A stretch of 64,000 bases of DNA, taken from positions 29,878,390-29,942,389 of the forward strand of contig OX637406.1 in assembly GCA_951799425.1 (NCBI GenBank), read 5' to 3'. The notes below the pieces were generated by a model. The model was not told where the DNA came from. It saw only the letters and a program-made list of their open reading frames with translations, and did no database searches. The translations under genes and the position numbers were made by a program. This DNA comes from Ilex aquifolium. Taxonomy: Eukaryota > Streptophyta > Magnoliopsida > Aquifoliales > Aquifoliaceae. Positions 1-44,536 of the stretch are shown here, piece by piece; position 1 is the stretch's first letter; every line of letters begins with the position of its first letter.

Positions 1-203
1 CTTCATTCTTTACATTTCCTTGACATTGCTCCCTTGGTCTTGCGTTATTTCGGCATTTGTCCTGCAACTTTCAGATAAAATGTTATACCTAATATCATTC
101 CCGCACAAACCCTAATTCACTCTAAGTACTAATTTTTAGTGCATTTATTATACTAATTTAAATTTTTTGATTTTTTAATTTATACATAATTTAGGTTTAA
201 TCA
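1..203 (-). repeat. 3' LTR of element A (only its first 203 bp lie in the window)
   Basis: Read on the minus strand this begins TGATTAAACC at 203 and runs off the left edge. By eye it is identical over all 203 bases to 8008-8210, the start of the other LTR of the same element. Identity of the two LTRs points to a recent insertion. The polypurine tract lies immediately to its right. Confidence 0.93.
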
Positions 204-6219: not shown

Positions 6220-6237
6220 TCCCCGGCAACGGCGCCA
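6220..6237 (-). other. Primer-binding site, tRNA-Asp type (element A)
   Basis: On the minus strand TGGCGCCGTTGCCGGGGA is an exact 18-nt complement of the 3' end of plant tRNA-Asp(GTC). It starts 6 nt inside the LTR end. This primer is characteristic of Athila-lineage elements. Confidence 0.93.
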
Positions 6238-6243
6238 AAAACT

Positions 6244-8210
6244 TGATTCGCACTTTTTAGTGTGTCAGAATTATATTATTATATTACACCCAAGTATAAG
6301 TGGTCGAATTGTAGTTTTCTTGGTTTTTGAGTCCAAGTATCGATCCCACAGAGAGTTTTAGTAATTAAAATAAAATAAAATAAATAAAATAAAAATAAAG
6401 CAATAAAAAGGTTGTTTGGAGTAGTTTGATGTTTAATCGCTTGTGGTGTGAGCTTAGTCTAATGACGGTGCTAAAAACTTGATTCTAAAATAACAGGTGG
6501 AATAAAGGTGCAGAAATAAAATGCGTACGTAAAACAAATGAATGACAGAAATATAAAAGATATCCTTCAGTTCAAGGATCCCACATGCTTTACATTGGTC
6601 TTGTTACGGAATTGCTACCTCACATCAGTTAACTTCCATTTTACTGGCAAGCTAACCGGCAGGTCTGATGTATATATATATTATAACACAGCTGCTTCTT
6701 AGGCTACACTGGTTATATTTATGTCAAATGATTAACCCAAGCAAACCAGAAGGACAAGCCATTCATGAGGAATACTTGAGTTATTCACTTGATCTCATGA
6801 TTGCAAATACGTATATATATAATAAACCATAACACAGCTGCTTCTTAGGCTACACCGGTGGTAATATATAGCACAGTTGCTTCTTAGGCTACACTGGGCT
6901 TAGATGTTCCAATTGATTAATTCAAGTAAAATCCGCAGGTGGTACAGACTATCTTCCGGTGACTTGTCAGGTCAACCGGTGGTAGTTAATCATAATACAA
7001 CTGCTTCTTAGGCTACACTGTATTTAGATATATCACCCAGAAAGTGAAGTTACTCGAACGGCATACTTGAATTATTCAATAGGTTATCTTGTAATATATA
7101 TATATATATATATAGACAGTAGAACTTCCTCAGCGTTCCAGTGTAGGACTAGCCATACTGACAGGATCACCGGGGTTATTCTAGCAGGCAATATTATTAT
7201 ATATATAGTAATACCAGGCGTCAGTGGAACTTCCTCAGCATTTCGGTGGAAACGCCGGGGTCATTCTAGCTGGCCCGTCTTATATATATATATAATACTA
7301 TCAGGCGTCAGTGGAACTTCCTCAGCATTCCAGTGGAGGATTAACCATACCGGTAGGAACGCCGGGGTCATTCTAGCTGGCCCGTCTTGTATATATAATA
7401 AACGTATAAATAAAACATCAGCAATTCCAAAAACAGATCAATATTATACATGTGTTCCCCTCGAACCGGAGGATATACGGAACTACTCACGCTCCATTGC
7501 TATAGACAAGCAAGGAGAGCTAGCAGTTGTCATTACAACAGAAAGGAAAGTGCGGAATTTAAATGTCTTTCGCAGGGAACGATTGAAACACAACCACTCT
7601 TATAATCGGTTAAGATGAAAAAGTGGCGGCAGTTCAATTATTCGAATTGAAAGCTATACAAAAACTATAAAGGTACAGGACTTAGGACTGAAGTATAACA
7701 TGGACCGGAGTGTATTTTCTCTTCTCTTTTCTTTCTCTCTTTTTCTCTCTTCAGAACTTCAGAACTTCAGAATCTCTCTCAGATCTCTCTGTTTCTCTCT
7801 TCTTTTCTGCCTCAGTCCGGCCGTGTATGAAAGCTGAAGAGTGTCCCTATTTATAGGCGTGGGAAGGCAAGTGGGAGAAGAGATGAGGCTGAGTCTGACA
7901 AGGGTGACCGTCCGGACGGCAGTCCCACCGTCCGGACGGTGGTGCTTTGCTGGAAACGGCCACTTGCATGCATGCTGAGTCTTCACGTTGGTTAATTACA
8001 CTTTGGCCTTCATTCTTTACATTTCCTTGACATTGCTCCCTTGGTCTTGCGTTATTTCGGCATTTGTCCTGCAACTTTCAGATAAAATGTTATACCTAAT
8101 ATCATTCCCGCACAAACCCTAATTCACTCTAAGTACTAATTTTTAGTGCATTTATTATACTAATTTAAATTTTTTGATTTTTTAATTTATACATAATTTA
8201 GGTTTAATCA
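6244..8210 (-). repeat. 5' LTR of element A (1967 bp)
   Basis: On the minus strand it begins TGATTAAACC at 8210 and ends GCGAATCA at 6244, with matching TGATT/AATCA tips. Two perfect CCGTCCGGACGG palindromes (7939-7928 and 7919-7908) lie 50-90 bp upstream of the TATA box TATAAATA (7856-7849). The downstream half holds imperfect repeats built on GCTGCTTCTTAGGCTACAC (6690-7020) and on TTCCTCAGC.TTCCAGTGGA (7120-7390). Open frames inside the LTR, such as the one at 7067-7618, are chance. Confidence 0.92.
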
Positions 8211-8719
8211 GGAGGCATTCAATTTTTTTTGACACCATATCTGACAGTTCTCAGATGTGGGACTCAGTCTCTCCTACCACTGTAGAAGCCAGACCATCTA
8301 CTTCCCAATGAGGTAAATATGTCTTAAGAGAGGATGATGACTTGAGAGCAAAAATGTCTACGTTGTCTCGAAAGCTTAAAGCTTTAGAGATGAAGAAAGT
8401 CCATCAAGTTGATGTTAGCTCTTCCACAGAACAAGTGTGTGGAATCTGTGCGCTAACAGGACACCCTACTGGGGAGTGTCCTACCATCCCAGCGTTCAAA
8501 GAGGTCTTGTTGGAACAAACACATGCAATTTCCAACTTCAACAAGCCTTACTCCAACCCATACTCTGAAACATACAATCCAGGGTGGCGGAACCACCCTA
8601 ACTTCAGTTGGAAGAACACACAACCAATGACCATGAACCAACAACAAGGATCATACCCACCACCTCAAGAACCTCCCGCATATCAACCATACCAACCACC
8701 ACAAAAAGATGAGCCTTGA
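8211..8719 (+). pseudogene. gag: Gag fragment of element B with CCHC zinc knuckle
   Basis: Gag sequence resumes at the right edge of element A, corresponding to 29389 onward in element D. An indel in a T run near 8230 and a stop before 8342 break the first part. From 8342 the frame is open and carries the zinc knuckle CGICALTGHPTGEC and the conserved NPYSETYNPGWRNHPNFSW segment. One extra base near 8705 shifts the frame, and the next segment continues in another frame from 8709. The N-terminal half of gag is to the left of element A, outside the window. Confidence 0.8.
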
Positions 8720-9563: not shown

Positions 9564-10667
9564 TTGGCCGACAAATCTGTCAAAACCCCCAGAGGGATTG
9601 TTGAAGATGTGCTTGTCCAAGTGGATAATTTTGTCTTCCCTGTTGACTTCATTGTTCTAGATACTCAGCCAGCAATACATTCGGAGAACCAAATTCCCGT
9701 CATTCTTGGTCGACCTTTCCTAGCAACCTCCAATGCACTAATCAATTGCAGGAATGGAGTCGTGAAATTAACTTTTGGGAATATGACTCTCGAACTAAAC
9801 ATTTTCAATATTGCTAAGCATCCAAAAGAAGAAAAGGAAGAAAGGGAAATAAACTCCATTGAATATTTGATACAGGAACATCTGAATGACATATTTTGTG
9901 AGGACCTTACTGAATCTTCTCTGTTGGAGTTCATCTCATTAGAAACAATAGATGATGACCCAAATCCACAATGTTGCCCTACTCATGCTGTTGAGACATG
10001 GGCCCCCAAATTCGAAGAGATTTCACCAAGTGGCACAAAGCCAATCTCATCAAGTGTTAGGCCACCAAAGCCTGAATTGAAACCTCTCCCATCTGACCTC
10101 AAATATGCACTCTTAGGAGAGGACAAGTCATACCCAGTGGTAATTTCATCTAAGCTCACAGACTTACAAGAGTCTAAATTGATTGAAGTTCTTCAAAGCC
10201 AAAAAAGCACCATTGGATGGACCATCGCTGACTTGAAAGGTATAAGCCCGTTAATCTGCAATCATGCTATATACTTTAAAGAAGATTCAAAACCCTCTCG
10301 TCAAATGCAGCGACGACTAAACCCTCACAGGAAGGAAGTTGTGAGAACTGAGGTACTCAAGCTCTTAGATGCAGGAATAATCTTCCCAATATCTGACAGC
10401 AAGTGGGTTAGTCCAACCCAAGTTATGCCCAAAAAGTCTGGGGTCACAGTGGTAAAAAATGATGCAAATGAACTAGTACCAACTGGAGTCGTCACAGGAT
10501 GGCGAATGTGCATTGATTATCGAAAACTCAATTTGGTCACTAGAAAAGATCATTTTCCTCTTCCATTTATTGACCAAGTCCTAGAGAGAATTGCAGGCCA
10601 TGCATTCTACTGTTTCCTAGATGGGTATTCTGGATACAATCAAATTGAAATAGCATTAGATGATTAG
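9564..10667 (+). pseudogene. pol: Protease C-terminus and N-terminal reverse transcriptase of element B
   Basis: It begins with the protease flap and second half (GIVEDVLVQVDNFVFPVDF, VILGRPFLATSNALINC), then a variable linker ending PPKPELKPLPSDLKYALLG, then RT: the fingers segment (HRKEVVRTEVLKLLDAGII), WRMCIDYRKLN, and the first catalytic Asp in FYCFLDGYSGYNQI. It ends at TAG (10665-10667) where the family normally has Gln before [11 protein letters not shown]. The frame then continues unchanged. Confidence 0.88.
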
Positions 10668-10715
10668 GAGAAAACAACCTTCACATACCCCTTTGGCACC
10701 TTTGCATTCAAAAGG

Positions 10716-11528
10716 ATGCCATTTGGGCTTTGTAACGCTCCTGCAACATTCCAAAGATGTATGCTAAGCTTGTTCAGTGATATGGTTGAAAAAATTTTGG
10801 AAGTATTCAAGGATGATTTCTCTGTATATGGTGACTCCTTTGATTTGTGTCTGACCAATCTGGAGAAAGTGCTAATCAGATGTAAGGAAGCCAATCTAGT
10901 GCTCAATTGGGAAAAATGCCATTTCATGGTAACACAAGGTATTGTCCTTGGTCACATTGTGTCGTCTGAGGGCATAAAAGTTGATAAGGCAAAAATAGAT
11001 CTGATTGGAAATTTGTCTGCCCCTAAGACTGTAAAGGATATCCGATCATTCCTAGGGCATGCATGTTTCTACAAGAGATTCATAAAAGATTTCAGTGCCA
11101 TAGCAAAACCCATGTGTCATCTTCTAAGTCAGGACGTAATCTTTGATTGGAATGAAGCATGCCAGAAAGCCTTTGACAAGCTGAAAGGCATGTTAATTTC
11201 TGCTCCAATAATGCAACCCCCTGACTGGAATCTACCCTTTGAACTAATGTGTAATGCAAGTGATTATGTTGTAGGTGCTGTATTGGGACAGAGAAAAGAT
11301 AAGAAATCCCATGTGATTTACTATGCAAGCAAAACTTTGAATGATGCTCAAATGAATTATTCAACAACTGAAAAAGAATTGCTTGCTGTAGTTTTTGCAC
11401 TGGAAAAATTCCGTTCTTATCTTGTTGGTTCTGCTGTTACTGTATTCACTGACCATGCAGCCCTAAAATTCTTGCTCACAAAGAAGGACGCCAAGCCTAG
11501 ACTCTTGAGATGGATACTCTTGCTCTAA
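10716..11528 (+). pseudogene. pol: C-terminal reverse transcriptase and RNase H of element B
   Basis: RT continues with [16 protein letters not shown] and the catalytic pair in [11 protein letters not shown]. The residue before the two aspartates is Lys, where this family normally has Met, which could impair the enzyme. The thumb/connection ([16 protein letters not shown]) is followed by RNase H, with the Asp of [16 protein letters not shown], the Glu of [14 protein letters not shown] and the Asp of [12 protein letters not shown]. Translation would stop at TAA (11526-11528), again replacing a Gln codon (element G has Gln at the same place). Confidence 0.88.
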
Positions 11529-11570
11529 GAGTTTGATCTTGTCATCAAGGACAAGAAGGGTATCGAGAAT

Positions 11571-12731
11571 GTGGTGGCAGATCATCTGTCCAGACTAACA
11601 TATGAATTTCGTGAGGATGGACTGCCAATCAATGAGAAATTTCCCGATGAACAACTGTTCATGATTGATAAGACACCATGGTACGCGGATATTGCTAATT
11701 TTCTTGCTACTGGTACACTCCCTCCATCCTTTACCATGATGGACAAAAAGAAATTTCTGAGGGAGGTTCGTAACTTCTTTTGGGAGGATCCCTACGTATT
11801 CAAGTACTGTAAGGATCAAATCATAAGACGTTGCATCCTCGCTCATGAAAGCAGCCAGGTAATAACATTTTGTCATTCTGAAACATGCGGTGGCCATTTT
11901 TCATCAAGAAAAATCGCTGCAAAAATATTGCAGTGTGGATTTTACTGGCCCACACTTTTCAAAGATGTCCATGCCTTTTGTTTAACTTGCGATAGATGTC
12001 AAAGGTTGGGAAGCATTTCTAAAAAAAATATGATGCCCTTAAATCACATTCTGGTAATTGAAATTTTTGACTGCTGGGGCATCGATTTTATGGGACCATT
12101 TCCCCCTTCCTTTGGCTATCTATATATTTTAGTGGCTGTAGACTATGTAGCCAAATGGGTTGAAGCAATTCCATGCCGAAATAATGATCACCAAACAATG
12201 ATCAAGTTTTTGAAAGAAAATATTTTGTCCCGGTTTGGAATTTTGAAATCAATCATAAGTGATGGGGGTGCTCATTTTTGCAATCGTCCCTTTTGGAATT
12301 TGATGAAAAAATACTTGATTTTTTACAAAATTGCAATCCCTTATCACCCACAGACCAGTGGACAAGTTGAACTAACTAATCGGGAGATCAAATTAATTTT
12401 GGAAAAAACGGTGAATCCAGACCGCAAAGATTGGTCGTTAAGACTAACTGATGCACTCTGGGCATACCGTACTGCTTTTAAAACAATTTTAGGCATGTCT
12501 CCTTATCGATTAGTCTATGGAAAACCGTGTCACCTACCTGTGGAATTGGAACATAGGGCATACTGGGCTATTAAAGCAATGAATTTTAACTTGGACAAGG
12601 CTGGACTAGCAAGGAAACTTCAGATAAATGAATTGGGGGAATTGAGAAATAAAGCATATGAGAATGCTAAAACCAGGATGAAAATTTTTCATGACAAAAA
12701 CATTGTGCGGAAATCTTTTGAGCCTTCTTAA
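11571..12731 (+). pseudogene. int: Integrase of element B (zinc and catalytic domains)
   Basis: The same frame as RT continues through the end of RNase H (VVADHLSRL). The HHCC zinc domain has HSETCGGH and CLTCDRCQR. The catalytic core shows DD35E: Asp in [10 protein letters not shown], Asp in IISDGGAHF, and Glu in [10 protein letters not shown] with 35 residues between the last two. The [12 protein letters not shown] segment typical of Athila integrases follows. A TAA at 12729-12731 replaces a Gln codon just before the C-terminal domain. Confidence 0.9.
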
Positions 12732-12737
12732 AAAGTC

Positions 12738-13618: not shown

Positions 13619-14029
13619 ATGGATGTTAAACTTTTTTGGTTTAGTTTAGGAGTTTTGCGCACTTTTTCATCTGATGTGCATACTGTAATCATGAGAAAAG
13701 CAAGACTAGTAAGGAAGGTCGAAATCCAAGAAAAACAAGCGAAACCCCTCTGTGGCAGAAGCACCTTTGTCAAATGCCGTCGTGCCAAAAGACTTGGTGC
13801 TTGTAAACAGTGTGGCAGAGTCTTTCACGAGAAAAGATACAACCAGTGTTCTGAACCAATCTCCGGTCGCGCACTCGATCGATTAGACTGGATAGTGAAT
13901 GGGCTGAGTAAGGATTACCCTGATACGCCATGCTATTCCGGTACTTTGCTTAACCGGTTTGTGAGAGACGAAATTGGGAGAGTCACTGGTTGTCCATTCT
14001 ACAAAGACACAGAAGGAGACTCGGATTAG
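13619..14029 (+). CDS. 136-aa accessory protein with variant CCHC zinc knuckle (element B copy)
   Basis: An intact ORF, although the neighbouring pol and ORF3 of this element are broken. Features in order: hydrophobic N-terminus (KLFWFSLGVLR), a conserved VIMRKARLVRK helix, a Cys at 45, an Arg/Lys block (CRRAKRLG), a zinc knuckle C62-x2-C65-x4-H70-x6-C77, then EPISGRALDRLDWI, SKDYPDTP and an acidic tail. Cys45, Cys62, Cys65, His70 and Cys77 are conserved in all three copies. The combination resembles the small cysteine-rich nucleic-acid-binding proteins of carlaviruses, encoded at the 3' end of those RNA genomes; some of them suppress RNA silencing or act in the nucleus. Homology is judged by eye. 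The role in the retrotransposon is unknown. Confidence 0.78.
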   Translation: MDVKLFWFSLGVLRTFSSDVHTVIMRKARLVRKVEIQEKQAKPLCGRSTFVKCRRAKRLGACKQCGRVFHEKRYNQCSEPISGRALDRLDWIVNGLSKDYPDTPCYSGTLLNRFVRDEIGRVTGCPFYKDTEGDSD

Positions 14030-17762: not shown

Positions 17763-18379
17763 TGATTAGCACTTAAAATTAGCATATTACTATGCCGTTT
17801 TAAGATTAATTGTACTTTGATGGAGTTTAAGTGATGTCATTTCAGGCCCTAAAATGAACAAGGACTCAAGAACAACAAGTACCACACTTGAATGCAACAC
17901 AAGCACATTAGAGCACAAAATTGGAGAAGCTTTGAGCACAGCCAGAACGTTCGAACGCCAACTCACGTTCGAACGTCCACATTGAACTGTAGCAGACCCA
18001 ACTGCTAAGAGAATGCGTGTTGCTGCGAGGAAAGAAGACTCTGAAGTTCTGAGGCACTTGAGTGTCACGTTCGAACGCCAACTCACGTTCGAACGTGCAC
18101 TTGAGTTGATTGAAGACCAGACTACTGCATAGAGTGTGGAATTGAACTTCACAGAAGACCAACAGATCACTCGAGTGAGAGGATCAGAACACATCTGGCG
18201 TTCGAACGCCCATAGTGCAAAAACAGAAGAAACGTTCGAACGGCAGACAACGTTCGAACGACCATAAAGCAAAAACATATACAACATTCAAACGCCAACT
18301 CACGTTCAACGTTCTCCACAGACTGGCAACAGAGTAGTTGGTTTTTCACTTGGACTTGGGCGGCATACACTATTCCTTC
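17763..18379 (+). repeat. 3' LTR of element B, first part (LTR1)
   Basis: It starts TGATTAGCAC and continues after element C at 25287. Clusters of CGTTCGAACG palindromes lie at 17947-18311, often as pairs separated by CCAACTCA. The segment ends at the CCTTC target site of element C (18375-18379). Confidence 0.9.
18375..18379. repeat. Target-site duplication of element C, left copy
   Basis: CCTTC here and at 25282-25286. Uninterrupted LTRs (for example near 35176) have a single CCTTC at this point. Confidence 0.93.
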
Positions 18380-18971
18380 TGTAACACCCCACATTTTCTT
18401 TTATATAGGTATATAGATATATAGTAAATAATTGTTGTAAAAATGGGGATATGCGTAGTGATGTGTGTTTGAATTTAGTAGATTGGAAAAGTAGAAATGA
18501 AAATGTTAGGCGGTGTAATAGGGTATGTATTAGAAGCTAGGAAGATTTTCGGAATGAAAGCACATTTAAGAGAAGACTTGGGTAGAAAAGATTTTGGACA
18601 CTTCCTAGTATTTTGATCATAAATTTTTATTCCAATGTCCATTTGATCTGAAATTTTTACAGTCGATAGTAGACTTCCAGGGCTATAAAAGTGTATTTCA
18701 CGAACATTTTCAAAATCAATCTCTAAATAGGCCAAAACTTCACTGGAAGTTGCAGCAGAAACAGGAATTCCGTTAGAATGTGAATCGACGTTCGAACGTG
18801 AATCGACATTCGAACGTGAACAAACGTTCGAACGAAAGTGCGTTCCAGTAATCTTGTCTGATGGAAAAACAAAAGTACTGGGAGTGACGAACGTTCGAAC
18901 GCCAATGACGTTCGAACGTGACTTGCGAATTCTGGGTTTCAGAATCGCGCACAGGAGGCCATTTCTTACCC

Positions 18972-18979
18972 TATAAATA
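18972..18979 (+). promoter_or_regulatory. TATA box in the 5' LTR of element C
   Basis: CTATAAATAC about 60 bp downstream of the last palindrome pair. The same box is at 24588-24595 in the 3' LTR and on the minus strand at 55355-55348 in the solo LTR of this family. Confidence 0.65.
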
Positions 18980-19553
18980 CATAAGGACGCCTCCATTAGT
19001 CCCATTTCAACATTTCAAACCCTAGGAAGACTTAGAGATGAGGAAAGAAGGGGAAAACACAAGATCAAATGAGGATTTTCACATTGAAGAGGATCAAAAC
19101 TTCAAGTTCCTCAAAAGAACACTAAGGAAGAAGAAGGTAGGGGTTTTTCTCTCATTCACTTACATTGAGGCTAGGGTATATATATATGTGTGTGTGTTTT
19201 GGCTATCAATGGCATATATATGCTATAGAATCATTCTCTCTTAGGCTTTTTGCAAAGATTACATGTTTTGAACAAAGTTAGGGTCTAATACCCATGAAAT
19301 CTCTTCTCTAGTTTTAAAACCCTCATTTTTGGAGAGTGATGTATTTCCTTCTTAAATGCTTTCTTTATTATGGATTTTCGAAACTTTAGTGCTTCATGTT
19401 GGGTAGAAAAATGATGTTATTGTGATCTCATGTATTTTTCTTAGTTGGTTGTGGAATTGTTACATGATATATTTTGGGGATTTTGGATAGATGCTTGTAA
19501 ATTGAGATAAATGTTGGAATTGTATGCTTGGTTGGGTTGTTTGTGATGCACAT

Positions 19554-19960
19554 GAGTGAGAGGTTCCATGTAAGGATGCTCACCCCTTCTCAAGAGGTTC
19601 TCGGTAAGGATGCTTGAGAAATAAGTCCATTATAGTGAGAGGTTCCTTGTAAGGATGCTCACCCCCTTCCTAAGAGGTTCCCGGTAAGGATGCTTGAGAA
19701 ATAAGTCCGTTATAGTGAGAGGTTCCTTGTAAGGATGCTCACCCCCTTCCCAAGAGGTTCCCGGTAAGGATGCTTGGGAAACAATGTAGTGATTGGTGAG
19801 AGGTTCCATGTAAGGATGCTCATCCATTCTCAAGAGGTTCCCGGTAAGGATGCTTGAAAAATAAGTCCGTTATAGTGAGAGGTTCCTTGTAAGGATGCTC
19901 ACCCCCTTCCCAAGAGGTTCCCGGTAAGGATGCTTGGGAAACAATGTAGTGATTGGTGAG
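19554..19960 (+). repeat. Tandem repeats in the LTR of element C
   Basis: About five repeats of a unit with GAGAGGTTCCTTGTAAGGAT, GCTCACCCCCTTCC and AAGAGGTTCCCGGTAAGGAT. The same units occur in reverse in the solo LTR at 54226-54490. They are absent from the 3' LTR of this element because of the 933-bp deletion. Confidence 0.85.
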
Positions 19961-20602
19961 AGGTTCCACAAAGTATGCCACCTACCGAAAGAATTGTTGG
20001 GGATTGTTTATGGCAATTAATGGTGATTAATTTGTATGTGGTGCTCGTTTATTCATTTAAGTAATGTTTTTACATAAAACTTGAGATCCTTTTTAAATGT
20101 CACTGTTTTCGTTCAAATTATATATCTATGTTATGTTACAAATGAGACCGACCGCTTTAAATGTTTTTCTAAACTTTGTTTGGGTTTGAGAGAATTTTTC
20201 TACAGAGCTTCGTGCTCACCCCCTACCGCTAACATTTTTTAGATTACCCGCTTGAGGAGGACGTAAGGGTCGAGGAGCCCGCTACTTGGGAGACTCCACT
20301 TGACGGGAGTGTGGATCCCGAGGTGGATGCCTAAAGCGACCTCCTTTCTTTTTTTACTAGACTAGGACATTCTTTTGGAACATTGTGTAGTCTAGTTTCT
20401 TTTGTTTATTCCGCTGTGCTACTTTAATTAATTTTTGAGATGTAATAGCCATAATTTGGGGCTTATTCTTTTGGATCACTTTGTAAATATTTGTGGATGA
20501 CAAATGACGTCTCGTTTCTTAAGGAATTATATTAGTGCTCTCATGATATGAATGTTTTAGAATATAATGTCGTACAGGGTGTGTTTTGGGGCGTTACAAA
20601 GT

Positions 20603-20614
20603 TGGTATCAGAGC
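20603..20614 (+). other. Primer-binding site, initiator tRNA-Met type (element C)
   Basis: TGGTATCAGAGC four nt after the LTR end is the standard complement of the 3' end of plant initiator tRNA-Met. Confidence 0.92.
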
Positions 20615-20789
20615 CTAGACTTTAGGTCTTACATGGGAGCTGTAGGTTATGGATTACCACTGGAGATGTCGGTTTAGGGTGAAGGAAATTGCTAAGTTAA
20701 ATTTTGTATATGCCTTGTGCTTAAATCAAGACATCCTACATATCACTTTAGTTTATGTCTTGTACATCAATGAACTAAGTTGTATATTG

Positions 20790-22420
20790 ATGTGCAAAAT
20801 AGACGGTGAACGAGGACGAAGACGTGGACGTGAACGAGGACGTGGACGTGGACGTGAACGTGAACGTGGACGTGGACGTGAACGAGGACGAGGACGTGGA
20901 CGTGAACGTGGACGTGGACGTGTACGTGAACGTGGAAGTGTATGTGAACGTGGATGTGGGCGTGGTCGTGGAGGTCAAGCCAATCCACCACCACCACCAC
21001 CTCCCGATGCCTTGAATGGCATATATCAATGCTTGAGGGAGCTCACCACTTTGGTACAAAACCAAAATGGGAACAATAACCATAATGGTGGAGCTCATCC
21101 ACTCGCTCAAGTACTAGGCAATGGGAACGGAGACCGAAGGATGATAGCTCTTCGGGAATTCTTGAGGTAACGTACACCCAATTTCCAAGGGAGCTCCAAT
21201 TCTTTGGATGCGGATAGGTGGATACGGCGGGTGAAGAAAGTGTGTGACAGCATGGGAGTTGCCGAAGATTTGAGGGTTGGCTTGGCAACCTACTTGTTAG
21301 AGGGGGAGGCCGACTAATGGTGGGATTCGGTTAAGAGACGGAGGGACACCGATGCTCTCACTTGGGAGGAGTTCGACCGAATCTTCCAAGACAAGTACTT
21401 CCCTGAATCAGTCAGAGACCGAATGAAGGCTGATTCTTGCATTACAACAGGGCAGTATGACGGTGGCCGAGTACGAGAGGAGGTTTGACGAGCTCTCCCG
21501 TTATGCTACGGGATTTATATCTACTGAGGCCGACAGGGCCAAACGCTTTGAGCAGGGATTGAGGCCTGTCATCCGGGAGAAGTTGGTGGCCCTCAAAATC
21601 TGGGAGTATGGGGACCTGGTTGACGAGCTGCATTGGTGGAGAGAGATATAGAGGACAGCCAGCGGCGACAGAGCTTCGCGAGAGGAGGTCCGATCAGGAT
21701 GGACCCTAGCACCAGTGGAGTGCAGCGAACAGCACCATACCGAAGTCCAGACCAGGCAGGTGGACAGAGACTTCTGACAGCTCGAGGAGATGAAGTGACT
21801 CAGACTAGAACAAACACTGACCCGCGCCAATGCTTTGCATGTGGAGAGTATGGGCACTTCAAACATAGATGCCCCTCGTTTCCCCCAAGGACCAAACAAG
21901 CAACCGAGCAAGTACCAGCAAACAAGCACCTCTACAAAGGCCAGCACAGGAAAGACCTCAGATAGCTCGAGGAGCGGGAGGCGTACCAGAGAGAGTAGGC
22001 ACGGATGCACGCCGATGTTTTGCCTGTGGAGGTGTTGGGCACTTCAAAGATAATTGTCCATTGCTTTCCACCAAGACCAACCAAGCAACTGGGCGAGTGG
22101 ATGCAAACAGGCCACCGCTACGACAGCCATTACCACCACAGAGACCGTTACAAGCTCATGCCCCCGGCGGCGCCAATCAAGGAAGGGTTTTTGCTTTGAC
22201 TCAACCGGAGGAAGATGCCTCCAACGCCGTTGTGGAAGGTATTGTTCTTCTCTACCATTCTTGGGCCCGAATTTTATTGGATTCCTATGCGACTCATTCT
22301 TTTATACGTACTGCGGACGCTGTGGAATTGGGATTGGGTTCCGAGGAGCTAGAACATGCTTTATATGTTGACTTGCCTACGGGAGAACAGGGGGATACCA
22401 GGCTGGTCTGTAAGGGTTAA
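20790..22420 (+). pseudogene. gag: Gag and protease of element C, frameshifted
   Basis: It starts MCKIDGERGRRRG, followed by a long Arg/Gly/Glu repeat (20810-20975) and a Pro run. The Gag domain (TPNFQGSSNSLDADRWIRRV and EEFDRIFQDKYFPESVRDRM) is interrupted by TAA at 21168 and at 21316, then spread over three frames. Two CCHC zinc knuckles are seen: CFACGEYGHFKHRC (about 21830) and CFACGGVGHFKDNC (about 22015). The protease follows as ARILLDSYATHSFI; the active-site Gly of the usual DSGA is Tyr here, so the protease is probably dead. Coding ends at TAA after CKG (22420), beyond which LTR-like sequence begins. A typical Tekay gag, but a decayed one. Confidence 0.85.
20810..20975 (+). repeat. 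Imperfect 6-bp tandem repeat encoding Arg-Gly/Arg-Glu
   Basis: Units CGTGGA, CGTGAA and CGAGGA alternate for about 165 bp near the Gag N-terminus, giving RGRGRERG-type repeats. The minus strand is also open here (His-Val repeats), which is a by-product. Confidence 0.85.
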
Positions 22421-22435
22421 GTGCAAGCGGATTAC

Positions 22436-23480
22436 ATTTCAGTTACCAGTAGGTTTACTTATATGTATTTCTTTGACTCTAAATGTTATATGTATGCTAT
22501 CCAATCCTTGATTCTTGCTATTCTTGAAATTAATGCCATGTGGAAAATAATGTGATGGTTGGGTAACCCTTAAATCGCCTTGCTTGCTACCAAACCTTAG
22601 CTTTCAAGGAAAATGTGTTTTTCTCTTGATTTCTCATTTGTTCTTGATTTCCACCCTTGATATTTGTTTGTTATTGATTTCAATACCTGATTGTTCCTTA
22701 TTTTTAATTCTAAGCTTGATATTCGTTGTTATGGATTTCAAGAAGTGATTGTTCCTTTGTTCTTGATCTCCAAGCTTAATATTCATTTGTTCTTGATATC
22801 TAAATTTGATATGCACTTGGTAGTGACTATAACCCTTGTGATTCAATTATTCTCAATATTCAATACTTGATATTCTTTATTCTTGGTTCCAAGACTTGAG
22901 TGTTCTTTTGGTCTTGATTTCTAAGCTTCATAATCCTTTATTCTTGATTTCACACCTTGATAGTCGTTTGTTATTGATTTACATACATGATTGTTCCGTT
23001 AAATCTTAATTTCTCCTTTGTTCATGACTTTCAAGCTTGATACGCCTTTATTCTTGATTTCCAAGCTTAATATTCATTTGCTCTTGATAGCCAAATTTGA
23101 TATTCATTTGATTGATTCTAACTATTGTAATTCATGTATTCTTGATATTCAATACTTGACATCCTTTGGTTCTTGATTTCAAGACTTGGTTGTTCCTTTG
23201 TTTTTAATTTCCCCAGGCTTGATGATCCATTGGTTCTTGATAGCCAAATTTAATATTCATTTGTTATTGATTCTAACCCTTGTGATTCATTTATTCTTGA
23301 TATTCAATACTTGATATTCATTGGTTCTTGATTTCAAGACTTGACATTCAATTGCTCTTGATTTCAATACTTGATTTCTCCTTGTCCTTGAGTTCAAAAC
23401 TTGATACTCTTTAGTTCTTGGTTACAAAGCTTGATTATTATTTGTTCCTTAATTCAAAATTCTAATGATTGGTATTGACC
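22436..23480 (+). repeat. LTR-derived repetitive insert in the pol region of element C
   Basis: The start (22450-22620, with TGTTATATGTATGCTATCCA) is co-linear with the reverse complement of about 55160-55000 in the solo LTR of the same family. It then becomes a degenerate array of about 30-bp units around TTCTTGATTTCAAGACTTGA (22620-23450), as also seen in reverse at 54660-54990. This array is absent from both LTRs of element C. It occupies the place of RT, RNase H and the integrase core. Confidence 0.7.
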
Positions 23481-23573
23481 AATAAAATGGAATTTTCGAT
23501 GATATTATGTTAATTCTTCTTAAATTATTTCGTTGGAAAAAATGTATGGGGATTTGGGTCGCCTAAGAAAGGA

Positions 23574-23954
23574 GTGTTTAGATTCGGCGAGAAGGAGAAG
23601 TTAGCGCCAAGATATACCGGACCGTTTGAGGTAATCAAAGCGGTAGTCAAGGCGGCATATCAACTTCGACTACCAGCCCAGCTATCTGAAGTACATGACG
23701 TGTTCCACGTGTCCATGTTAAGAAGGTGTCACTCGGATGCAACTCCAGTCGTGAACTTGGAGGAGATTGAAATTCAAGACGGAGCAACCTACGCAGAACA
23801 ACCGGTAGAAATTCTCGACGCCCAGGAAAAAGTGATTCGCAACAAAGTTATCAGATTGGTGAAGATTTTGTGGCAACACCATGGAGTGGAGGAAGCTACA
23901 TGGGAACCGGAGCAAGAAATGCGGGAGAAGTATCCATATTTGTTCGCTACTTGA
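23574..23954 (+). CDS. int: Integrase C-terminus with chromodomain (element C remnant)
   Basis: A 126-codon segment. KLAPRYTGPFEVIKAV and YQLRLPAQLSEVHDVFHVSM form the integrase C-terminal domain (GPF/Y type). After a linker, VEILDAQEKVIRNKVIRLVK and WQHHGVEEATWEPEQEMREK form a chromodomain, which in chromoviruses directs insertion to particular chromatin. It ends at TGA before the polypurine tract. The catalytic core is missing, so this is a remnant although open to its natural end. Confidence 0.9.
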   Translation: MFRFGEKEKLAPRYTGPFEVIKAVVKAAYQLRLPAQLSEVHDVFHVSMLRRCHSDATPVVNLEEIEIQDGATYAEQPVEILDAQEKVIRNKVIRLVKILWQHHGVEEATWEPEQEMREKYPYLFAT

Positions 23955-23981
23955 GGTAAGTTTCGAGGACGAAACTTTCTT

Positions 23982-23995
23982 TAAGGGGGGTGGAT
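23982..23995 (+). other. Polypurine tract of element C
   Basis: TTAAGGGGGGTGGA immediately before the 3' LTR start TGTAACACCC at 23996. Confidence 0.85.
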
Positions 23996-25281
23996 TGTAA
24001 CACCCCGCATTTTCTTTTATATAGGTATATAGATATATAGTAAATAATTGTTGTAAAAATGGGAATATGCGTAGTGATGTGTGTTTGAATTTGATAGATT
24101 GGAAAAGTAGAAATAAAAATGTTAGGTGGTGTAATAGGGTATGTATTAGAAGCTAGGAAGATTTTCGGAATGAAAGCACATTTAAGAGAAGACTTGGGTA
24201 GAAATGATTTTGGACACTTCCTAGTATTTTGATCATAAATTTTTATTCCAATGTCCGTTTGATCTGAACTTTTTACAGTCGATAGTAGACTTCCAGGGCT
24301 ATAAAAGTGTATTTCATGAACATTTTCAAAATCAATCTCTAAATAGGCCAAAACTTCACTGGAAGTTGCAGCAGAAACAGGAATTCCGTTCGAACGTGAA
24401 TCGACGTTCGAACGTGAATCGACATTCGAACGTGAACAAACGTTCGAACGAAAGTGCGTTGCAGTACTCTTGTCTGATGGAAAAACAAAAGTACTGGGAG
24501 TGACGAACGTTCGAACGCCAATGACGTTCGAACGTGACTTGCGAATTCTAGGTTTCAGAATCGCGCACAGGAGGCCATTTCTTACCCTATAAATACATAA
24601 GGACGCCTCCATTAGTCCCATTTCAACATTTCAAACCCTAGGAAGACTTAGAGAGGAGGAAAGAAGGGGAAAACACAAGATCAAAGGAGGATTTTCACAT
24701 TGAAGAGGATTAAAACTTCAAGTTCCTCAAAAGAACACTAAGGAAGAAGAAGGTAGGGGTTTTTCTCTCATTCACTTACATTGAGGCTAGGGTATATATA
24801 TATGTGTGTGTTTTGGATATCAATGGTATATATATATGCTATAGAATCATCATCTCTTAGGCTTTTTGCAAAGATTACATGTTTTGAACAAAGTTAGGGT
24901 TTAATACCCATGAAATCGCTTCTATAGTTTTAAAACCCTCATTTTTGGAGAGTGATGTATTTCCTTCTTAAATGCTTTCTTTATTATGGATTTTCGAAAC
25001 CTTAGTGCTTCATGTTGGGTAGAAAAATGATGTTATTGTGATCTCATGTATTTTTCTTAGTTGGTTGTGGAATTGTTACATGATATATTTTGGGGATTTT
25101 GGATAGATGCTTGTAAATTGAGATGTAATAGCCATAATTTGGGGCTTATTCTTTTGGATCACTTTGTAAATATTTGTGGATGACAAATGGAGTCTCGTTT
25201 CTTAAGGAATTATATTAGTGTTCTCATGATATGAATGTTTTAGAATGTAATGCCGTCCAGGGTGTGTTTTGGGGCGTTACA
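23996..25281 (+). repeat. 3' LTR of element C (1286 bp, internally deleted)
   Basis: Co-linear with the 5' LTR except for loss of the segment matching 19509-20441. The junction lies in the short repeat TGAGAT present at both ends of the lost segment, so it looks like a microhomology or slippage deletion. The length difference is exactly 933 bp. Confidence 0.92.
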
Positions 25282-26591
25282 CCTTCACCCCCTCTTGTCT
25301 CCTCCTCTTGCCTATAAATACTCCCATTGTTGGAGAGCTAAGAGAGCCAAGTAGAGAGGTTGATGGAGGCTTAGACTCCCACTCATATTGTAGATTTAGC
25401 TTGCATTTCCTTGTATGAAGTCTTTATTTTAGAGATTAGTTTGGCTTTAGTCCAACATCTCTTTGCTTGTTATAGAAGTAGTTTTATGCTTATGCTTTCA
25501 CTTACATGCATAGAAGGGGATTAGTTCATCTTTTGGTTGAGGAAGCAACCCTCCATTCCTTGGTTGAGGAAGCCACCCTCCAAATATGACTAGCTTTCTT
25601 CTACTTTTATTGTTTATGTACTTCACTTCCATTGCTTGAGCTTCTTTCTTTCTTAGAGGGGCGAAACTTTTCCGCTTTTCTAGAGCTTTACCAAAGCCGT
25701 GAAGGGTGGAACGTGATTAACTCATTCTTTGTTAAAGATTGGCTCCTTGTTTATTGTTATTTCATTTTGTAAGTCCTCTACTTGGAGGGATGAGCATCAC
25801 CCATTTTTCTAGCTTTGCCAAAGCAATGAAGAGTTAGTAGTTTCTCATTCACTCTTTAGTAAGAGGAGAAGGGCATGTATAAGTTATCCGGGAATTATAT
25901 TTGTGCTATGTTCTGATGCTTAACGTTTATTTCTCCTTAATTATTAGATGATTGATTGCATCTAGCAAAGCTAAGATACTTTGTATAACCGTGGGATCCT
26001 TCTATGACACGGATGACTCTTGCATAGAAAGACTCATCGGTTCAAGGTAAGTACCCCGGCTAGATATTCAGGACTACCCTTCAATCCTCCCCATTATTGT
26101 GTTTCACTTAAAGAATGGAATATTAATGTCATGGTTGGATGTCATGTAGAAACACTTGTTTGTTTGTAGACGGGTTAAGTCTCGGCACAGACAATTCTTG
26201 TAAACTTCTAGAAAGACATCGGAATCATGTTCTTAATTCTCACAGTCCATCTTTATCTTTCGATTAACTTGTTGTTGACACGGGAATTAATTGAGTTATC
26301 AAACACAAGTATAATAAATCGGATAATTAACTACATGTCCATATCCTTGAACTAAAGAGTGACTCTTTTTCATTCGAGCTTATCTCATATTTTGTTAAGA
26401 AAATTCTCTTGGAAAGAATCTTATATTCTTTCCAGGAAATCTCACACCTCACAACAAATCTCAAAGGTTACAATCAATAGGTCTCCACCACTGCTTATCT
26501 CAAAAATACCAACAAAAGTTCCATGTGGATTCGACTCCGGAATCAAACCGGATTATTACTATAGCTTGACCGCCTGCACTTGGGTGTACAC
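25282..26591 (+). repeat. 3' LTR of element B, second part (LTR1 continued)
   Basis: It begins with the right copy of CCTTC (25282-25286) and resumes the LTR with a TATA box (TATAAATA, 25313-25320). It ends at GGGTGTACAC, 18 bp short of the full LTR end seen at 28541 and 36519. Element D starts immediately after. Confidence 0.9.
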
Positions 26592-28541
26592 TGATTAGTA
26601 CTTAAAATTGACATATTATTATGACATTTTAAGACTAATTGTACTTTAATGGAGTTTAAGTGATGTCATTTCAGGCCCTAAACTGAACAAGGACCCAAGA
26701 ACAACAAGTACCACACTTGGATGCAGCACCAGCACATTAGAGCCCAAAATTGAAGAAGCTTGGAGCACAGCCAGAACGTTCGAATGCCAACTCACGTTCG
26801 AACGTCCACCTTACACTGTAGCAGACTCAACTGCTGAAGAGAAGGCGTGTTGCAGTTAGGAAAGAAGACTGGAGCTTTGAAGCACTTGAGTGTCACGTTC
26901 GAACGCCAACTCACGTTCGAACGTGCACTTGAGTTGATGGAAGACCAGACTAATGCAAAGAGTTGGAACAAAACTTCACAAAAGACCAACAGACCACTCG
27001 AGTGAAAGGGTCAGAGCAAATCTGGCGTTCGAACGCCCTTAGTGCAAAAACAGAAGAAACGTTCGAACGGCAGTCAACGTTCGAACGCCCGTAGTGCAAA
27101 AACAGAAAGAACGTTCGAACGCCAACTCACGTTCGAACGTTATCCACAGACTGGCAGTAGAGTTGTTGACGGTTCACTTGGACTTGGACGGCAAACACTA
27201 TTCCTTCACCCCCCCTCCTTGTCTCCTCCTCTTGCCTATAAATACTCCCCTTGTTGGAGAGCTATGGGAGCGAATAGGAAGTAGGAAAGTTGATGGAGGC
27301 TTAGACTCCCACTCTCATTGTAGATTTAGCTCATTTTCCTTGTATGAAGTCTTTATTTTAGAGATTAGTTTGGCTTTAGTCCAACATCTCTTGCTTGTTA
27401 TAACAGTAGTTTATGCTTATGCTTATGTTTATGCTTTCATTTTTCATGCATAGAAGAGAGATAGCTCACCTTTTGGTTGAGGAAGCAACCCTCCAATTCT
27501 TGGTTGAGGAAGCCACCCTCCAAATGTGACTAGCTTTCTTCTACTTTTATTGTTCATACATTTCACTTCCATTGCTTGCGCTTCTTTCTTTCTTAGAAGA
27601 GTGAAACTCTTCCACTTTTTTAGAGTTTTACCAAAGCCGTGAAGGGTGGAACGTGATTCACCCATTCTTTGTTAAAGATTGGCTACGCATTTGTTGTTAA
27701 TTTATCTTATAAGTTCTCTACTTGGAGGGATGAACATCACTCACTTTTCTAGTTTTACCCAAGTCATGAAGAGTGAGTAGTTTCTCATTCACTCTTTAGC
27801 AAGAGGAGAAGCGCATGTATAAGTTATCCGGGAATCATATTTGTGCAATGTTTTTATGCTTAACGCTTATTTCTTCTTGTTATTGGATGATTGATTGCAT
27901 CTAGCAAAGTTAAGGTACTTTGTATAATTGTGGGCTCTTTCTATGACACGGATGACTCTTGCATAGAAAGACTCATCAGTTCAAGGCAAGTACCCCGGCT
28001 AGATCCTCATGACTACCCTTCAATCTTCCCCCTTATTGCACTTCATTTAAGGAATGGAATATTAATATCATGATTGGATGTCTTGTAGAAACACTTGCTT
28101 GTTTGTAGACGGGTTAAGTTTCGGCACAGGCAATTCTTGTAAACTTCTAGAAAGACATCGGAATCATGGTCTTAATTCTCACAATCCATCTTTATCTTCC
28201 GATTAACTTGCTGTTGACACGGGAGTTAATTGAGTTATCAAGCACAATTATGACAAACCGGATAACTAACTACATGTCCAGATCCTTGCACTAAAGAGTG
28301 ACTTTTTTTATTTAGCACCTATTTTGTTAAGAAAATCCTCTTGGAAAGAATCTTATATTCTGTTCAGGAAAACTCATATCTCACAGCAAATCTCAAAGGT
28401 TACAATCAGTCGGTCTCTACCAGTGCTCACCTCAGAAATATCAACAAAAGTTCCCTGTGGATTCGACTCCGGACTCAAACCGGATTATTACTACAGCTTG
28501 AGCGCCTGCACTTGGGTGTACACATTTCGGATCAAGCATCA
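26592..28541 (+). repeat. 5' LTR of element D (LTR2, 1950 bp)
   Basis: It starts TGATTAGTAC and ends AAGCATCA, with TGAT/ATCA tips. Palindromes of the CGTTCGAACG family at 26775-27142 are followed by TATAAATA (27237-27244). Very similar to LTR3 (34567-36519), so D is fairly young. Confidence 0.9.
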
Positions 28542-28547: not shown

Positions 28548-28565
28548 TGGCGCCGTTGCCGGGGA
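28548..28565 (+). other. Primer-binding site, tRNA-Asp type (element D)
   Basis: TGGCGCCGTTGCCGGGGA, perfect 18 nt, 6 nt after the LTR end. Confidence 0.93.
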
Positions 28566-30452: not shown

Positions 30453-30863
30453 ATGGATGTAAATCTTTTTTGGTTTAGCCTAGGAGTTCTACGTACCTTT
30501 CCATCTAATGTACATACTATGATCATGAGAAAAGCAAGATTAGTAAGGAAGGCTGAAATCAAAGAAAAACAAGCGAAACCCCTCTGTGGCAGAAGCAGCT
30601 TTGCTAAACGCCGTCGTGCCAAAAGGCTTGGTGCCTGTAAACAGTGTGGCAGATTCTTTCACGAAAAAAGGTACAACCAGTGTTCTGAACCAATTTCCGG
30701 TCGCGCACTTGATCGATTAGACTGGATAGTGAATGGGCTGAGTAAGGATTACCCTGATACGCCATGCTATTACGGTACTGTGCTTAACCGATTTGTGAGA
30801 GAAGAAGTTGGGAGAGTTACTGGTTGTCCATTCTACACAGACACAGAGGGAGACTCAGATTAG
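30453..30863 (+). CDS. 136-aa accessory protein with variant CCHC zinc knuckle (element D copy)
   Basis: An intact ORF with about 90 percent identity to the B copy. It keeps the basic block (FAKRRRAKRLGACKQCGR), the Cys-x2-Cys-x4-His-x6-Cys knuckle, EPISGRALDRLDWIV, SKDYPDTPCY and the acidic end (DTEGDSD). It is the only protein gene of D without a frameshift or stop. Similarity to carlavirus cysteine-rich nucleic-acid-binding proteins applies as for 13619-14029. The N-terminal 20 residues are hydrophobic but too short and charged for a sure membrane anchor. Confidence 0.78.
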   Translation: MDVNLFWFSLGVLRTFPSNVHTMIMRKARLVRKAEIKEKQAKPLCGRSSFAKRRRAKRLGACKQCGRFFHEKRYNQCSEPISGRALDRLDWIVNGLSKDYPDTPCYYGTVLNRFVREEVGRVTGCPFYTDTEGDSD

Positions 30864-40883: not shown

Positions 40884-41048
40884 ACCTTAATTTAGAGAAA
40901 GTAAGAGAATTGAACTTTGGGGGAAGTAATTTGAAGGTTAGAAGAGAGTAGGAGGAGAGGAGAGTGTTTGAGTGCAAGAGATGGATTGGAAATGTGAAGA
41001 GTTTTTCAAAAATTTTGACTTTAAAACCCTTGTTTTTTATTTTCTGGG

Positions 41049-41144
41049 CAAAACCTTCCGGAAGGTTTTGCTTACTGCTTGGATTAAAAATTCCAGTAGA
41101 CAAAACCTTCCGGAAGTTCGATCAAAACCTTCCGGAAGGTTTTG
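41049..41144 (-). promoter_or_regulatory. Palindrome cluster upstream of ORF3 of G
   Basis: Two perfect copies of CAAAACCTTCCGGAAGGTTT (41049 and 41123) and one half-shortened copy (41101), lying 170-260 bp upstream of the ORF3 frame. Same palindrome as in the left LTR. No clear TATA box was found, so promoter function is less certain than in A, B and D. Confidence 0.45.
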
Positions 41145-41159
41145 CCTTTTCTACAAAAC

Positions 41160-44509: not shown

Positions 44510-44536
44510 AAATCTTCTTCGATCCTTCGGGCTCCA

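What the first reader, a model, noticed from the sequence alone, without database searches (positions are those of the whole stretch)
13619..14029. Athila-like retrotransposons carry a carlavirus-like cysteine-rich nucleic-acid-binding gene
Three intact 136-aa ORFs (13619-14029, 30453-30863, minus 3262-2852) sit just after integrase, or after the place where pol was deleted. The two families share about half the residues, including Cys45, Cys62, Cys65, His70 and Cys77. The pattern of a GRSSFAKRRRA-type basic block, a zinc knuckle of spacing Cys-x2-Cys-x4-His-x6-Cys and an EPISG motif recalls the cysteine-rich NABP of carlaviruses, some of which suppress RNA silencing or act as nuclear regulators. 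All other long genes in B and D are broken, but this one is open in all three copies. A retroelement that acquired a viral silencing suppressor, or the reverse transfer, would be a new system.
Basis: partly seen in the sequence, partly recalled or inferred. Interest (0 to 1): 0.92.

Follow-up and report, generated by a model that had tools for sequence, protein, structure and literature searches.

The report
Plant retrotransposons carrying a virus-like suppressor gene
Abundant jumping elements in a plant genome carry and maintain a small zinc-motif gene that is truly related to a gene which several plant RNA viruses use to blunt the plant's RNA-silencing defence, suggesting that these elements and viruses share an anti-defence tool.

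Summary
The three 136-codon ORFs are real and open. All exceed Pfam's curated cut-offs for PF05515 Viral_NABP and PF01623 Carla_C4. They align with named viral proteins far above shuffles; vitivirus GVA p10 scores highest (z 18-22). This is homology, flexivirid-wide rather than carlavirus-only.

The host genome has 800 Mb. The B and D queries each scored 150 of 4,090 candidate places (94-100% and 81-100% identity). dN/dS between window copies is 0.15-0.18; in 21 loci it is 0.14, against 0.15 for integrase.

Two lineages lost pol with different breakpoints, yet both kept gag and this gene and multiplied. Window element D is one: LTRs 99.8% identical, 5-bp TSD, 831-aa gag-protease ORF plus NABP, so it probably moved recently in trans. 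A related neighbour shows no NABP.

Relatives occur among Populus, Xanthoceras, Rhamnella and Orobanche proteins, context unseen. Direction of transfer is unresolved. Silencing suppression is the leading inference, not shown. Seven literature searches for a prior report, and the passages read, gave none; the library is open-licence only.

The parts
13619..14029 (+). NABP ORF of element A (136 aa, P0001)
   Evidence: PF05515 29.7 bits (cut-off 23), PF01623 22.8 bits (cut-off 20.9)
30453..30863 (+). NABP ORF of element B (136 aa, P0002)
   Evidence: PF05515 36.6 bits, PF01623 26.6 bits; 150 own-genome matches scored at 94-100% identity
2852..3262 (-). NABP ORF of element D (136 aa, P0003)
   Evidence: PF05515 43.4 bits, PF01623 28.2 bits; 150 own-genome matches scored at 81-100% identity
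3591..6086 (-). Element D gag-protease ORF, 831 aa, no stop
   Evidence: PF03732 60.2 bits; PF13650 aspartyl protease 17.3 bits, below its cut-off of 24.3; tblastx match to A from 8225 to 9935
6220..6237 (-). Element D primer-binding site
   Evidence: exact 18-base match to the same PBS as in B and C
6244..8210 (-). Element D 5' LTR
   Evidence: window 6244-8018 is 99.8% identical to its 3' LTR in the fetched left flank L081; 8008-8210 is 100% identical to window 1-203
1..203 (-). Element D 3' LTR, 5' part (continues outside the window)
   Evidence: target-site duplication GGAGG on both sides of D
8211..8215 (.). Target-site duplication of element D, right copy
9564..12731 (+). Element A pol stretch as open pieces in one frame: 9564-10667 (no family hit), RT/RNase H 10716-11528, integrase 11571-12731; the pieces are parted by single stop codons
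15159..15905 (+). Element A third ORF, PF20167 'Putative plant transposon protein'
   Evidence: 63 bits (cut-off 45)
17763..26591 (+). Element A 3' LTR (17763-18379 and 25282-26591), split by an inserted repeat element at 18380-25281 that has its own terminal repeats
26592..28523 (+). Element B 5' LTR
   Evidence: K2P 0.021 to the 3' LTR
28548..28565 (+). Element B primer-binding site
28661..30146 (+). Element B gag, in two overlapping ORFs in different frames
30117..30118 (+). Element B pol-deletion junction: A-like sequence up to A 8948, then from A 13277
   Evidence: near-identical gag-to-leader junctions in L011, L024, L025
34567..36501 (+). Element B 3' LTR
39627..45413 (-). Related element C (A-pol-like stretch 45413-43533, PF20167 ORF 40883-39627, PBS 45735-45752) in which tblastn with ten NABP proteins finds no NABP: internal comparison

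Best explanation
A group of Athila-like Ty3/gypsy LTR retrotransposons encodes, just 3' of pol, an accessory protein that is homologous to the cysteine-rich nucleic-acid-binding protein (NABP, also CRP) of plant flexivirids. Proposed mechanism: the protein is made from the element's RNA, binds one zinc through Cys62-Cys65-His70-Cys77, enters the nucleus through its basic block (KRRRAKR in B, KCRRAKR in A, KHRRANR in D), binds RNA, and damps RNA silencing of the element, as viral NABPs do for their own genomes. Shown here: the ORFs, the homology, the codon-level constraint, the high copy number, and retention of the gene in two pol-deleted lineages with different breakpoints, one with a recently inserted member. 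Inferred: zinc and RNA binding, nuclear location, silencing suppression, mobilisation in trans. Retention of gag and NABP suggests the protein helps the RNA that encodes it, or its packaging, while RT and integrase come from other copies.
For: Pfam PF05515 and PF01623 above curated cut-offs in 3 of 3 proteins. Local alignment with GVA p10: 30 of 60 aligned residues identical for B; z 17.9, 21.8 and 20.7 against 200 shuffles for P0001, P0002 and P0003. Foldseek against viral models: the 8 hits at E<=0.001 are all flexivirid proteins, labelled RNA silencing suppressor, RNA- or nucleic-acid-binding, or (one) 15 kDa protein; no PDB hit at that level. Selection: dN/dS 0.17 (A-B), 0.15 (A-D), 0.18 (B-D); 0.14 for NABP against 0.15 for integrase in the same 21 loci; 15 amino-acid changes A-B against 24.7 expected, lowest of 5,000 draws 15. 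Pol-less copies: pN/pS 0.15 within the B type (4 copies), 0.05 and 0.27 within the two D types (3 and 8 copies), 0.11 between the D types (24 pairs). Gag-to-NABP structure in 4 of 30 B-query loci, 12 of 30 D-query loci and 2 of 20 further D-family loci. Different breakpoints in B and D. D: 2 mismatches and 2 gap positions between LTRs over about 1.97 kb, TSD GGAGG. Function of viral relatives: suppressor in GVA (passages); allexivirus CRPs are suppressors, with an NLS needed in GarV-X (passages).
Against: No expression, RNA-binding or suppression data. The genomic samples were ranked by similarity to the NABP protein, which favours intact copies; the intended unbiased sample through gag or integrase could not be drawn because the genome search stayed busy. 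Low pN/pS in pol-less copies could partly reflect recombination with pol-bearing copies. At long range NABP changes faster than integrase (dN 0.33 against 0.11). D's basic block is less basic than B's. The structural model is modest (pLDDT 71.5, pTM 0.41) and TM-scores to the eight best viral hits are 0.35-0.52. The zinc spacing differs between the element and each viral genus. The 129-147-aa and 182-aa relatives were seen without genomic context.
Confidence: 0.6

Rival explanations
1. The protein is a homologue of viral NABPs but works mainly as a nucleic-acid chaperone, packaging aid or nuclear regulator of the element's or host's transcription, not as a silencing suppressor.
For: Basic block plus zinc motif fit RNA or DNA binding in general. 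Retention together with gag in pol-less elements fits a packaging or chaperone partner of Gag.
Against: Viral relatives with tested function are reported as suppressors in two genera. Element C, related by pol and PF20167, shows no NABP, which suggests that such elements can do without it, though C may be a decayed copy that lost it.
Confidence: 0.28
2. Plant host gene origin: a cellular zinc protein was captured separately by retroelements and by flexivirids.
For: Named plant proteins carry PF01623 (Rhamnella, Xanthoceras, Populus, Orobanche). One viral clade is not rejected, so a third source is possible.
Against: The five named plant hits are hypothetical proteins without a functional name; several relatives are short or frame-altered variants as expected of repeats. 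Of 80 own-genome loci inspected, 71 have gag or pol sequence upstream.
Confidence: 0.08
3. Chance convergence of a basic block next to a zinc knuckle; no common ancestry with viral NABPs.
For: Short domain, low global TM-scores, different zinc spacings.
Against: Two Pfam models above cut-off, pairwise z 18-22 with GVA extending past the zinc motif into the ISG-x3-DRL and TPxY stretches, 388 proteins at E<=0.1 in one profile search, and only flexivirid proteins at E<=0.001 in the viral structure library.
Confidence: 0.03
4. Passive passenger: the ORF is a captured viral fragment without function, kept because the elements are young.
For: D is young, and many B-family copies are near-identical.
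Against: A-D synonymous divergence is near 2 per site (rough, near saturation) while the frame and 60% of residues persist; tblastx finds no D counterpart of A's PF20167 ORF; dN/dS 0.15.
Confidence: 0.02

Closest known systems
Vitivirus p10 RNA-binding protein (Grapevine virus A), PF05515
   Same: Highest-scoring named viral match; shared basic block, zinc cysteines and His, ISG-x3-DRL and TPxY stretches; with the relative P0010 the match reaches the acidic C-terminus
   Different: p10 is 90 aa and lacks the N-terminal helical region (its alignment starts at element residue 41-44); Cys spacing C-x-C; sits in an RNA virus genome 3' of the coat protein (passage)
Carlavirus and allexivirus cysteine-rich NABP/CRP (PF01623, PF05515)
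   Same: Profile hits above cut-off; the allexivirus alignment also covers part of the N-terminal region; RNA-silencing suppressors in allexiviruses (passages)
   Different: Lower pairwise scores than GVA; longer Cys-His spacing; virus gene, not retroelement gene
Athila/Calypso group Ty3/gypsy retrotransposons with 3' extra ORFs
   Same: gag-pol order, one shared exact PBS, a 3' ORF (here PF20167)
   Different: Described 3' ORFs are env-like or of unknown origin (part 1 of 3 read, passages); the large survey counted only extra ORFs of at least 250 codons, so a 136-codon gene was below its limit
Sunflower LTR retrotransposons with extra-ORF proteins of predicted dsRNA-binding-like structure (PMC11728184)
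   Same: Plant retrotransposon extra ORFs for which a role in modulating RNA silencing is proposed (passages)
   Different: Assigned there by structural similarity to a plant DRBM protein; in the passages seen no sequence homology to a viral suppressor family is reported
TR-GAG non-autonomous elements (Terminal-repeat Retrotransposons with GAG domain)
   Same: LTRs and gag without pol (name seen only in a search listing; definition recalled)
   Different: B and D also keep an NABP gene, retained in two pol losses with different breakpoints
Retrotransposons with viral or RNA-modifying accessory domains: insect elements with viral SF1 helicase (PMC6338049), orchid Ty3/gypsy with AlkB demethylase (PMC9289625)
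   Same: Accessory RNA-related domain kept by a retroelement; the helicase has weak silencing-suppressor activity (part 1 of 4 read)
   Different: Different protein families and hosts; NABP is not among the domains named in the section on the 121-angiosperm screen that I read; not all 15 are named there, and its supplementary chart was not seen

Membership tests
Viral NABP protein family (PF05515 / PF01623) | Significant match to the curated profile | tested here: met
   3 of 3 above both gathering scores
Viral NABP protein family (PF05515 / PF01623) | G(R/K)S-type basic block followed by a Cys/His zinc motif | tested here: met
   Regex finds the basic block in 15 of 17 and CX2CX4HX6C in 15 of 17 of the close group; A's block (FVKCRRA) departs from the regex, and the zinc spacing differs among groups
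Viral NABP protein family (PF05515 / PF01623) | Fold similar to viral NABPs | tested here: inconclusive
   Foldseek E down to 9.4e-7 with viral proteins of this kind, but TM 0.35-0.52 for the eight best and rmsd 8-13; model pLDDT 71.5
Viral NABP protein family (PF05515 / PF01623) | RNA binding and suppression of RNA silencing | not testable with these tools
   Needs protein and plant assays
Flexivirus or endogenous flexivirus insertion | Flanked by flexivirus coat protein or replicase sequence | tested here: not met
   Flanks are gag, pol, PF20167 and LTRs
Ty3/gypsy LTR retrotransposon | RT-RNase H before integrase; LTRs, PBS, TSD | tested here: met
   Domain order in A; PBS, LTRs and TSD in B and D; no single copy in the window was seen whole
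Athila lineage | PBS complementary to tRNA-Asp | tested here: inconclusive
   One 18-base PBS exact in B, C, D and the remnant at 36526; tRNA-Asp for Calypso and Diaspora, but its letters were not shown, so the match to tRNA-Asp is recalled
Athila lineage | No chromodomain and no second RNase H (aRH, which marks Tat) | tested here: inconclusive
   None found in the four A ORFs scanned (8709-12731); 12732-13276 not scanned
Athila lineage | RT/RH/INT phylogenetic placement in Athila | not tested
   No reference RT sequences at hand
Athila lineage | PF03078 Athila ORF-1 (not a constant mark: 16% of Athila elements) | tested here: inconclusive
   Not found in the 20 window ORFs scanned, which says little for so rare a mark
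TR-GAG type non-autonomous element (definition recalled) | Complete LTRs and TSD, gag, no RT or integrase, multiple copies | tested here: met
   D; copies L032 and L035 with the same gag end and spacer

The most novel reading that the evidence does not exclude
The anti-silencing NABP module of plant flexivirids and the NABP of plant LTR retrotransposons are one shared gene pool. The retroelement side, with divergent groups spread in plant genomes, may be the older reservoir from which vitivirus, prunevirus, trichovirus, carlavirus and allexivirus NABPs were drawn. In the plant studied, gag plus NABP forms a pol-free mobile unit that spreads by supplying its own anti-defence protein while borrowing reverse transcriptase and integrase.
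Probability: 0.2. Interest if true: 0.95.

Novelty: new variant of a known kind. Interest (0 to 1): 0.82.

Why it matters
Plant LTR retrotransposons are a main target of RNA silencing and RNA-directed DNA methylation, yet how they would fight back with proteins of their own is largely open. A conserved, high-copy retroelement gene homologous to viral suppressors makes this directly testable with ordinary assays. It also offers an origin question for a suppressor family used by many plant viruses, and a possible reason why pol-less elements keep one extra gene besides gag. It shows that surveys limited to extra ORFs of 250 codons or more can overlook accessory genes under selection.

Tried and rejected
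Chance ORF: rejected. Zinc-knuckle convergence: rejected. Endogenous RNA-virus insertion: rejected, no viral flanks. IMG/VR scan for viral loci: 34 pattern stretches, none confirmed. Plasmid collection: no match. PDB by sequence: best E 0.16, only ribosomal or small zinc proteins. PDB by fold: nothing at E<=0.001. First structure from 14 close sequences: pLDDT 45, not used. Tree of 45 chosen rows over 133 columns: viruses as one clade are neither shown nor rejected (AU p 0.41), with long branches meeting, so no direction of transfer is claimed. Rfam at gathering scores: no match among 4,227 families. Steinbauerova 2011, cited in papers seen, is not held under the DOI that I tried from memory. 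The 182-aa group was to be sought in the window's own genome, but those searches did not complete.

Dropped rows: of 388 protein hits only 120 were listed; 73 sequences went into the structure alignment and 45 of 152 into the tree. In one search, loci with under 100 integrase codons were dropped (21 of 29 and 28 of 36 kept). In one search, L034, L036, L058 and L061-L080 were left out, and L003, L005, L006 and L014, which have no integrase or a cut one upstream, were counted in the pol-bearing B set.

Full report
OBSERVATION. The three ORFs are present, open and 136 aa long. A (13619-14029 +) and B (30453-30863 +) are 89% identical; D (2852-3262 -) is 57-61% identical to them. D's gag-protease ORF (831 aa) is intact, against the statement that all other long genes in B and D are broken.

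IDENTITY OF THE GENE. Each protein passes the curated Pfam score for PF05515 Viral_NABP (29.7, 36.6, 43.4 bits; cut-off 23) and PF01623 Carla_C4 (22.8, 26.6, 28.2; cut-off 20.9). A search of 5.8 billion proteins with one sequence found 12 relatives, all with both Pfam domains precomputed. A profile search found 388 at E<=0.1, of which 120 were listed. Most listed ones belong to a group typified by 182 aa, with zinc spacing C-x2-C-x4-C-x3-C in 94 of the 97 rows so grouped. The five named plant ones are from Rhamnella rubrinervis, Xanthoceras sorbifolium, Populus alba, Populus x canadensis and Orobanche hederae, on contigs of 11-55 Mb, so they are plant-genome proteins; their neighbours were not seen. 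A third profile search brought named viral proteins: Garlic virus D, Shallot virus X, Grapevine virus A, Carrot vitivirus 1 and Elderberry carlavirus A.

Of the six viral sequences compared (one unnamed), the best-scoring for P0001, P0002 and P0003 is GVA p10 (scores 118, 123, 110; z 17.9, 21.8, 20.7 against 200 shuffles). Identity is 30 of 60 aligned residues for B, 29 of 60 for A and 28 of 65 for D, and the match runs past the zinc motif into the ISG-x3-DRL and TPxY stretches. The basic block differs among the three: KRRRAKR in B, KCRRAKR in A, KHRRANR in D.

The second structure model (73 sequences) has pLDDT 71.5 and pTM 0.41. Foldseek against viral models gave 8 hits at E<=0.001, all flexivirid proteins labelled RNA silencing suppressor, RNA- or nucleic-acid-binding or 15 kDa protein, led by Glyptostrobus pensilis prunevirus, Cherry mottle leaf virus, Prunevirus armeniacae and Grapevine virus D. 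Their TM-scores are 0.35-0.52, so this supports family membership through combined sequence and local structure, not a firm global fold. Viral sequences were part of the alignment behind the model, so the two lines are not fully independent.

ELEMENT ANATOMY. B has LTRs at 26592-28523 and 34567-36501 (K2P 0.021), a PBS at 28548, gag in two overlapping frames and NABP; A-like sequence breaks off at A 8948 and resumes at A 13277. D has a 5' LTR at 6244-8210 and a 3' LTR that begins at 203 and continues outside the window. The two differ by 2 mismatches and 2 gap positions over about 1.97 kb, and both ends are flanked by GGAGG. D is therefore a complete, recently inserted element that has gag-protease and NABP; no RT, RNase H or integrase match to A was found in it. 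It has A-like sequence to A 9935 and again from A 13551, so its pol loss differs from B's. A carries pol pieces, NABP, a PF20167 ORF and a 3' LTR split by a later insertion. Element C in the same window has an integrase, the same PBS and PF20167, but tblastn with ten NABP proteins finds none there. tblastx finds no D counterpart of A's PF20167 ORF. A PPT-like motif lies upstream of NABP in A and B, with a shorter match in D.

GENOME-WIDE. The window is C16:29878390-29942389 of an 800-Mb genome in 103 contigs; that it is a plant is inferred from content. The B query scored 150 of 4,090 candidate places, all at 94-100% identity; 14 of the 150 carry an internal stop by my count of the rows. The D query likewise scored 150 of 4,090, at 81-100%; its stops were not tallied, since many rows show one stop with a 135-aa frame, probably at the protein's end. 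In the 30 best B-query loci (window B included), 4 have gag directly upstream, 22 have integrase (one of them rearranged), 3 have RT with a cut integrase and 1 has neither. In the 30 best D-query loci (window D included) the figures are 12 gag, 16 integrase and 2 neither. In 20 further, more divergent D-family places, hand-picked from the lower half of the list, they are 2 gag, 12 integrase and 6 neither. Together 71 of 80 have gag or pol upstream.

SELECTION. Nei-Gojobori dN/dS is 0.17 (A-B), 0.15 (A-D) and 0.18 (B-D); the last two rest on dS near 2 and are rough. A-B changes fall 11, 5 and 21 on codon positions 1, 2 and 3, with 15 amino-acid changes against 24.7 expected. Part of A's 3' sequence beyond the gene (14030-14600) is as similar between A and B (92%) as NABP (91%), so raw identity alone is no argument; the codon pattern is. 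In 21 loci bearing integrase, NABP and integrase have dN/dS 0.14 and 0.15 against A, with frame changes or stops in 1 and 7 loci. In 28 D-family loci dN from A is 0.33 for NABP and 0.11 for integrase, with breaks in 4 and 11: NABP is constrained but evolves faster. Among pol-less copies pN/pS is 0.15 (B type, 4 copies), 0.05 (first D type, 3 copies), 0.27 (second D type, 8 copies) and 0.11 between the two D types. All these loci were ranked by NABP similarity, which lowers such ratios; recombination with pol-bearing copies is a further reservation.

MECHANISM. A protein kept by selection and homologous to viral NABPs most likely binds nucleic acid through its basic block and zinc site. Viral relatives suppress RNA silencing in GVA (PMC4472227, passages seen) and in allexiviruses, where the NLS of GarV-X CRP is needed (PMC10335701, passages seen). 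I therefore infer an element-encoded counter-silencing protein, at roughly even odds as to silencing itself. A chaperone, packaging or regulatory role is the main rival. The pol-less gag plus NABP lineages are the most telling fact: whatever NABP does, elements that must borrow RT and integrase still keep it.

DIRECTION. The tree (45 rows, 133 columns) separates the 182-aa group (100/97) and the 136-aa group (88/86), but does not decide whether viruses form one clade (AU p 0.41) and has no root. Capture from a virus, capture by viruses and a shared third source all remain open.

LITERATURE. Seven searches looked for a prior report; three more asked about viral function, Athila and TR-GAG. Neither these nor the passages and sections read showed this gene in retrotransposons. 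Vicient and Casacuberta 2020 (PMC7264820, part 1 of 3 read) states, for antisense extra ORFs, that similarity to viruses is lacking. Neumann 2019 (PMC6317226, section 6 and passages) counted only extra ORFs of at least 250 codons. Alvarado-Marchena 2022 (PMC9289625, section 12 and passages) found 15 extra domains in 121 angiosperms; those named in the section do not include NABP, and its supplementary chart was not seen. A sunflower study (PMC11728184, passages) proposes silencing modulation for extra-ORF proteins of dsRNA-binding-like structure. A known plant insertion from this virus family is a replicase-like piece in cucumber (PMC3136472, passages). The library holds open-licence papers only, so absence of a report is not proven.

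VERDICT. Function and direction are open. I rate it a new variant of a known kind: a retrotransposon accessory gene, here of a viral suppressor family.

Noticed in passing
window 13420, 30260 (+), about 3395-3401 (-): A PPT-like motif (TTTAGGTTGGGG in A and B, GTTGGGGAGA in D) lies roughly 140-200 bases upstream of NABP, like the one next to B's 3' LTR at 34555; possibly an ancestral or internal polypurine tract.
   Followed up: partly
window 36502-36804: After B's 3' LTR the sequence continues with a second PBS (36526) and about 300 bp of internal 5' sequence, and A's 3' LTR abuts B's 5' LTR at 26591/26592: tandem or recombinant arrangement of related elements.
   Followed up: partly
window 18380-25281: An element with its own 96-97% identical terminal repeats is inserted in A's 3' LTR; similar sequence recurs on the other strand at 53289-56040.
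   Followed up: no
window 61859-62311 (-): ORF with a NAM (NAC transcription factor) domain, 96.6 bits: a likely ordinary plant gene at the window's end.
   Followed up: no
P0021, P0023-P0027, P0030, P0051, P0053, P0124-P0136 (unnamed sources): A further NABP group of mostly 129-147 aa, including shortened and frame-altered variants, hence perhaps another genomic repeat family; context not seen.
   Followed up: partly
L038, L041, L044, L046-L049, L056, L058: A second pol-less D-type set shares D's gag end and gag-NABP spacer but has about 270-290 bases without a match to D within the gag-protease region.
   Followed up: no
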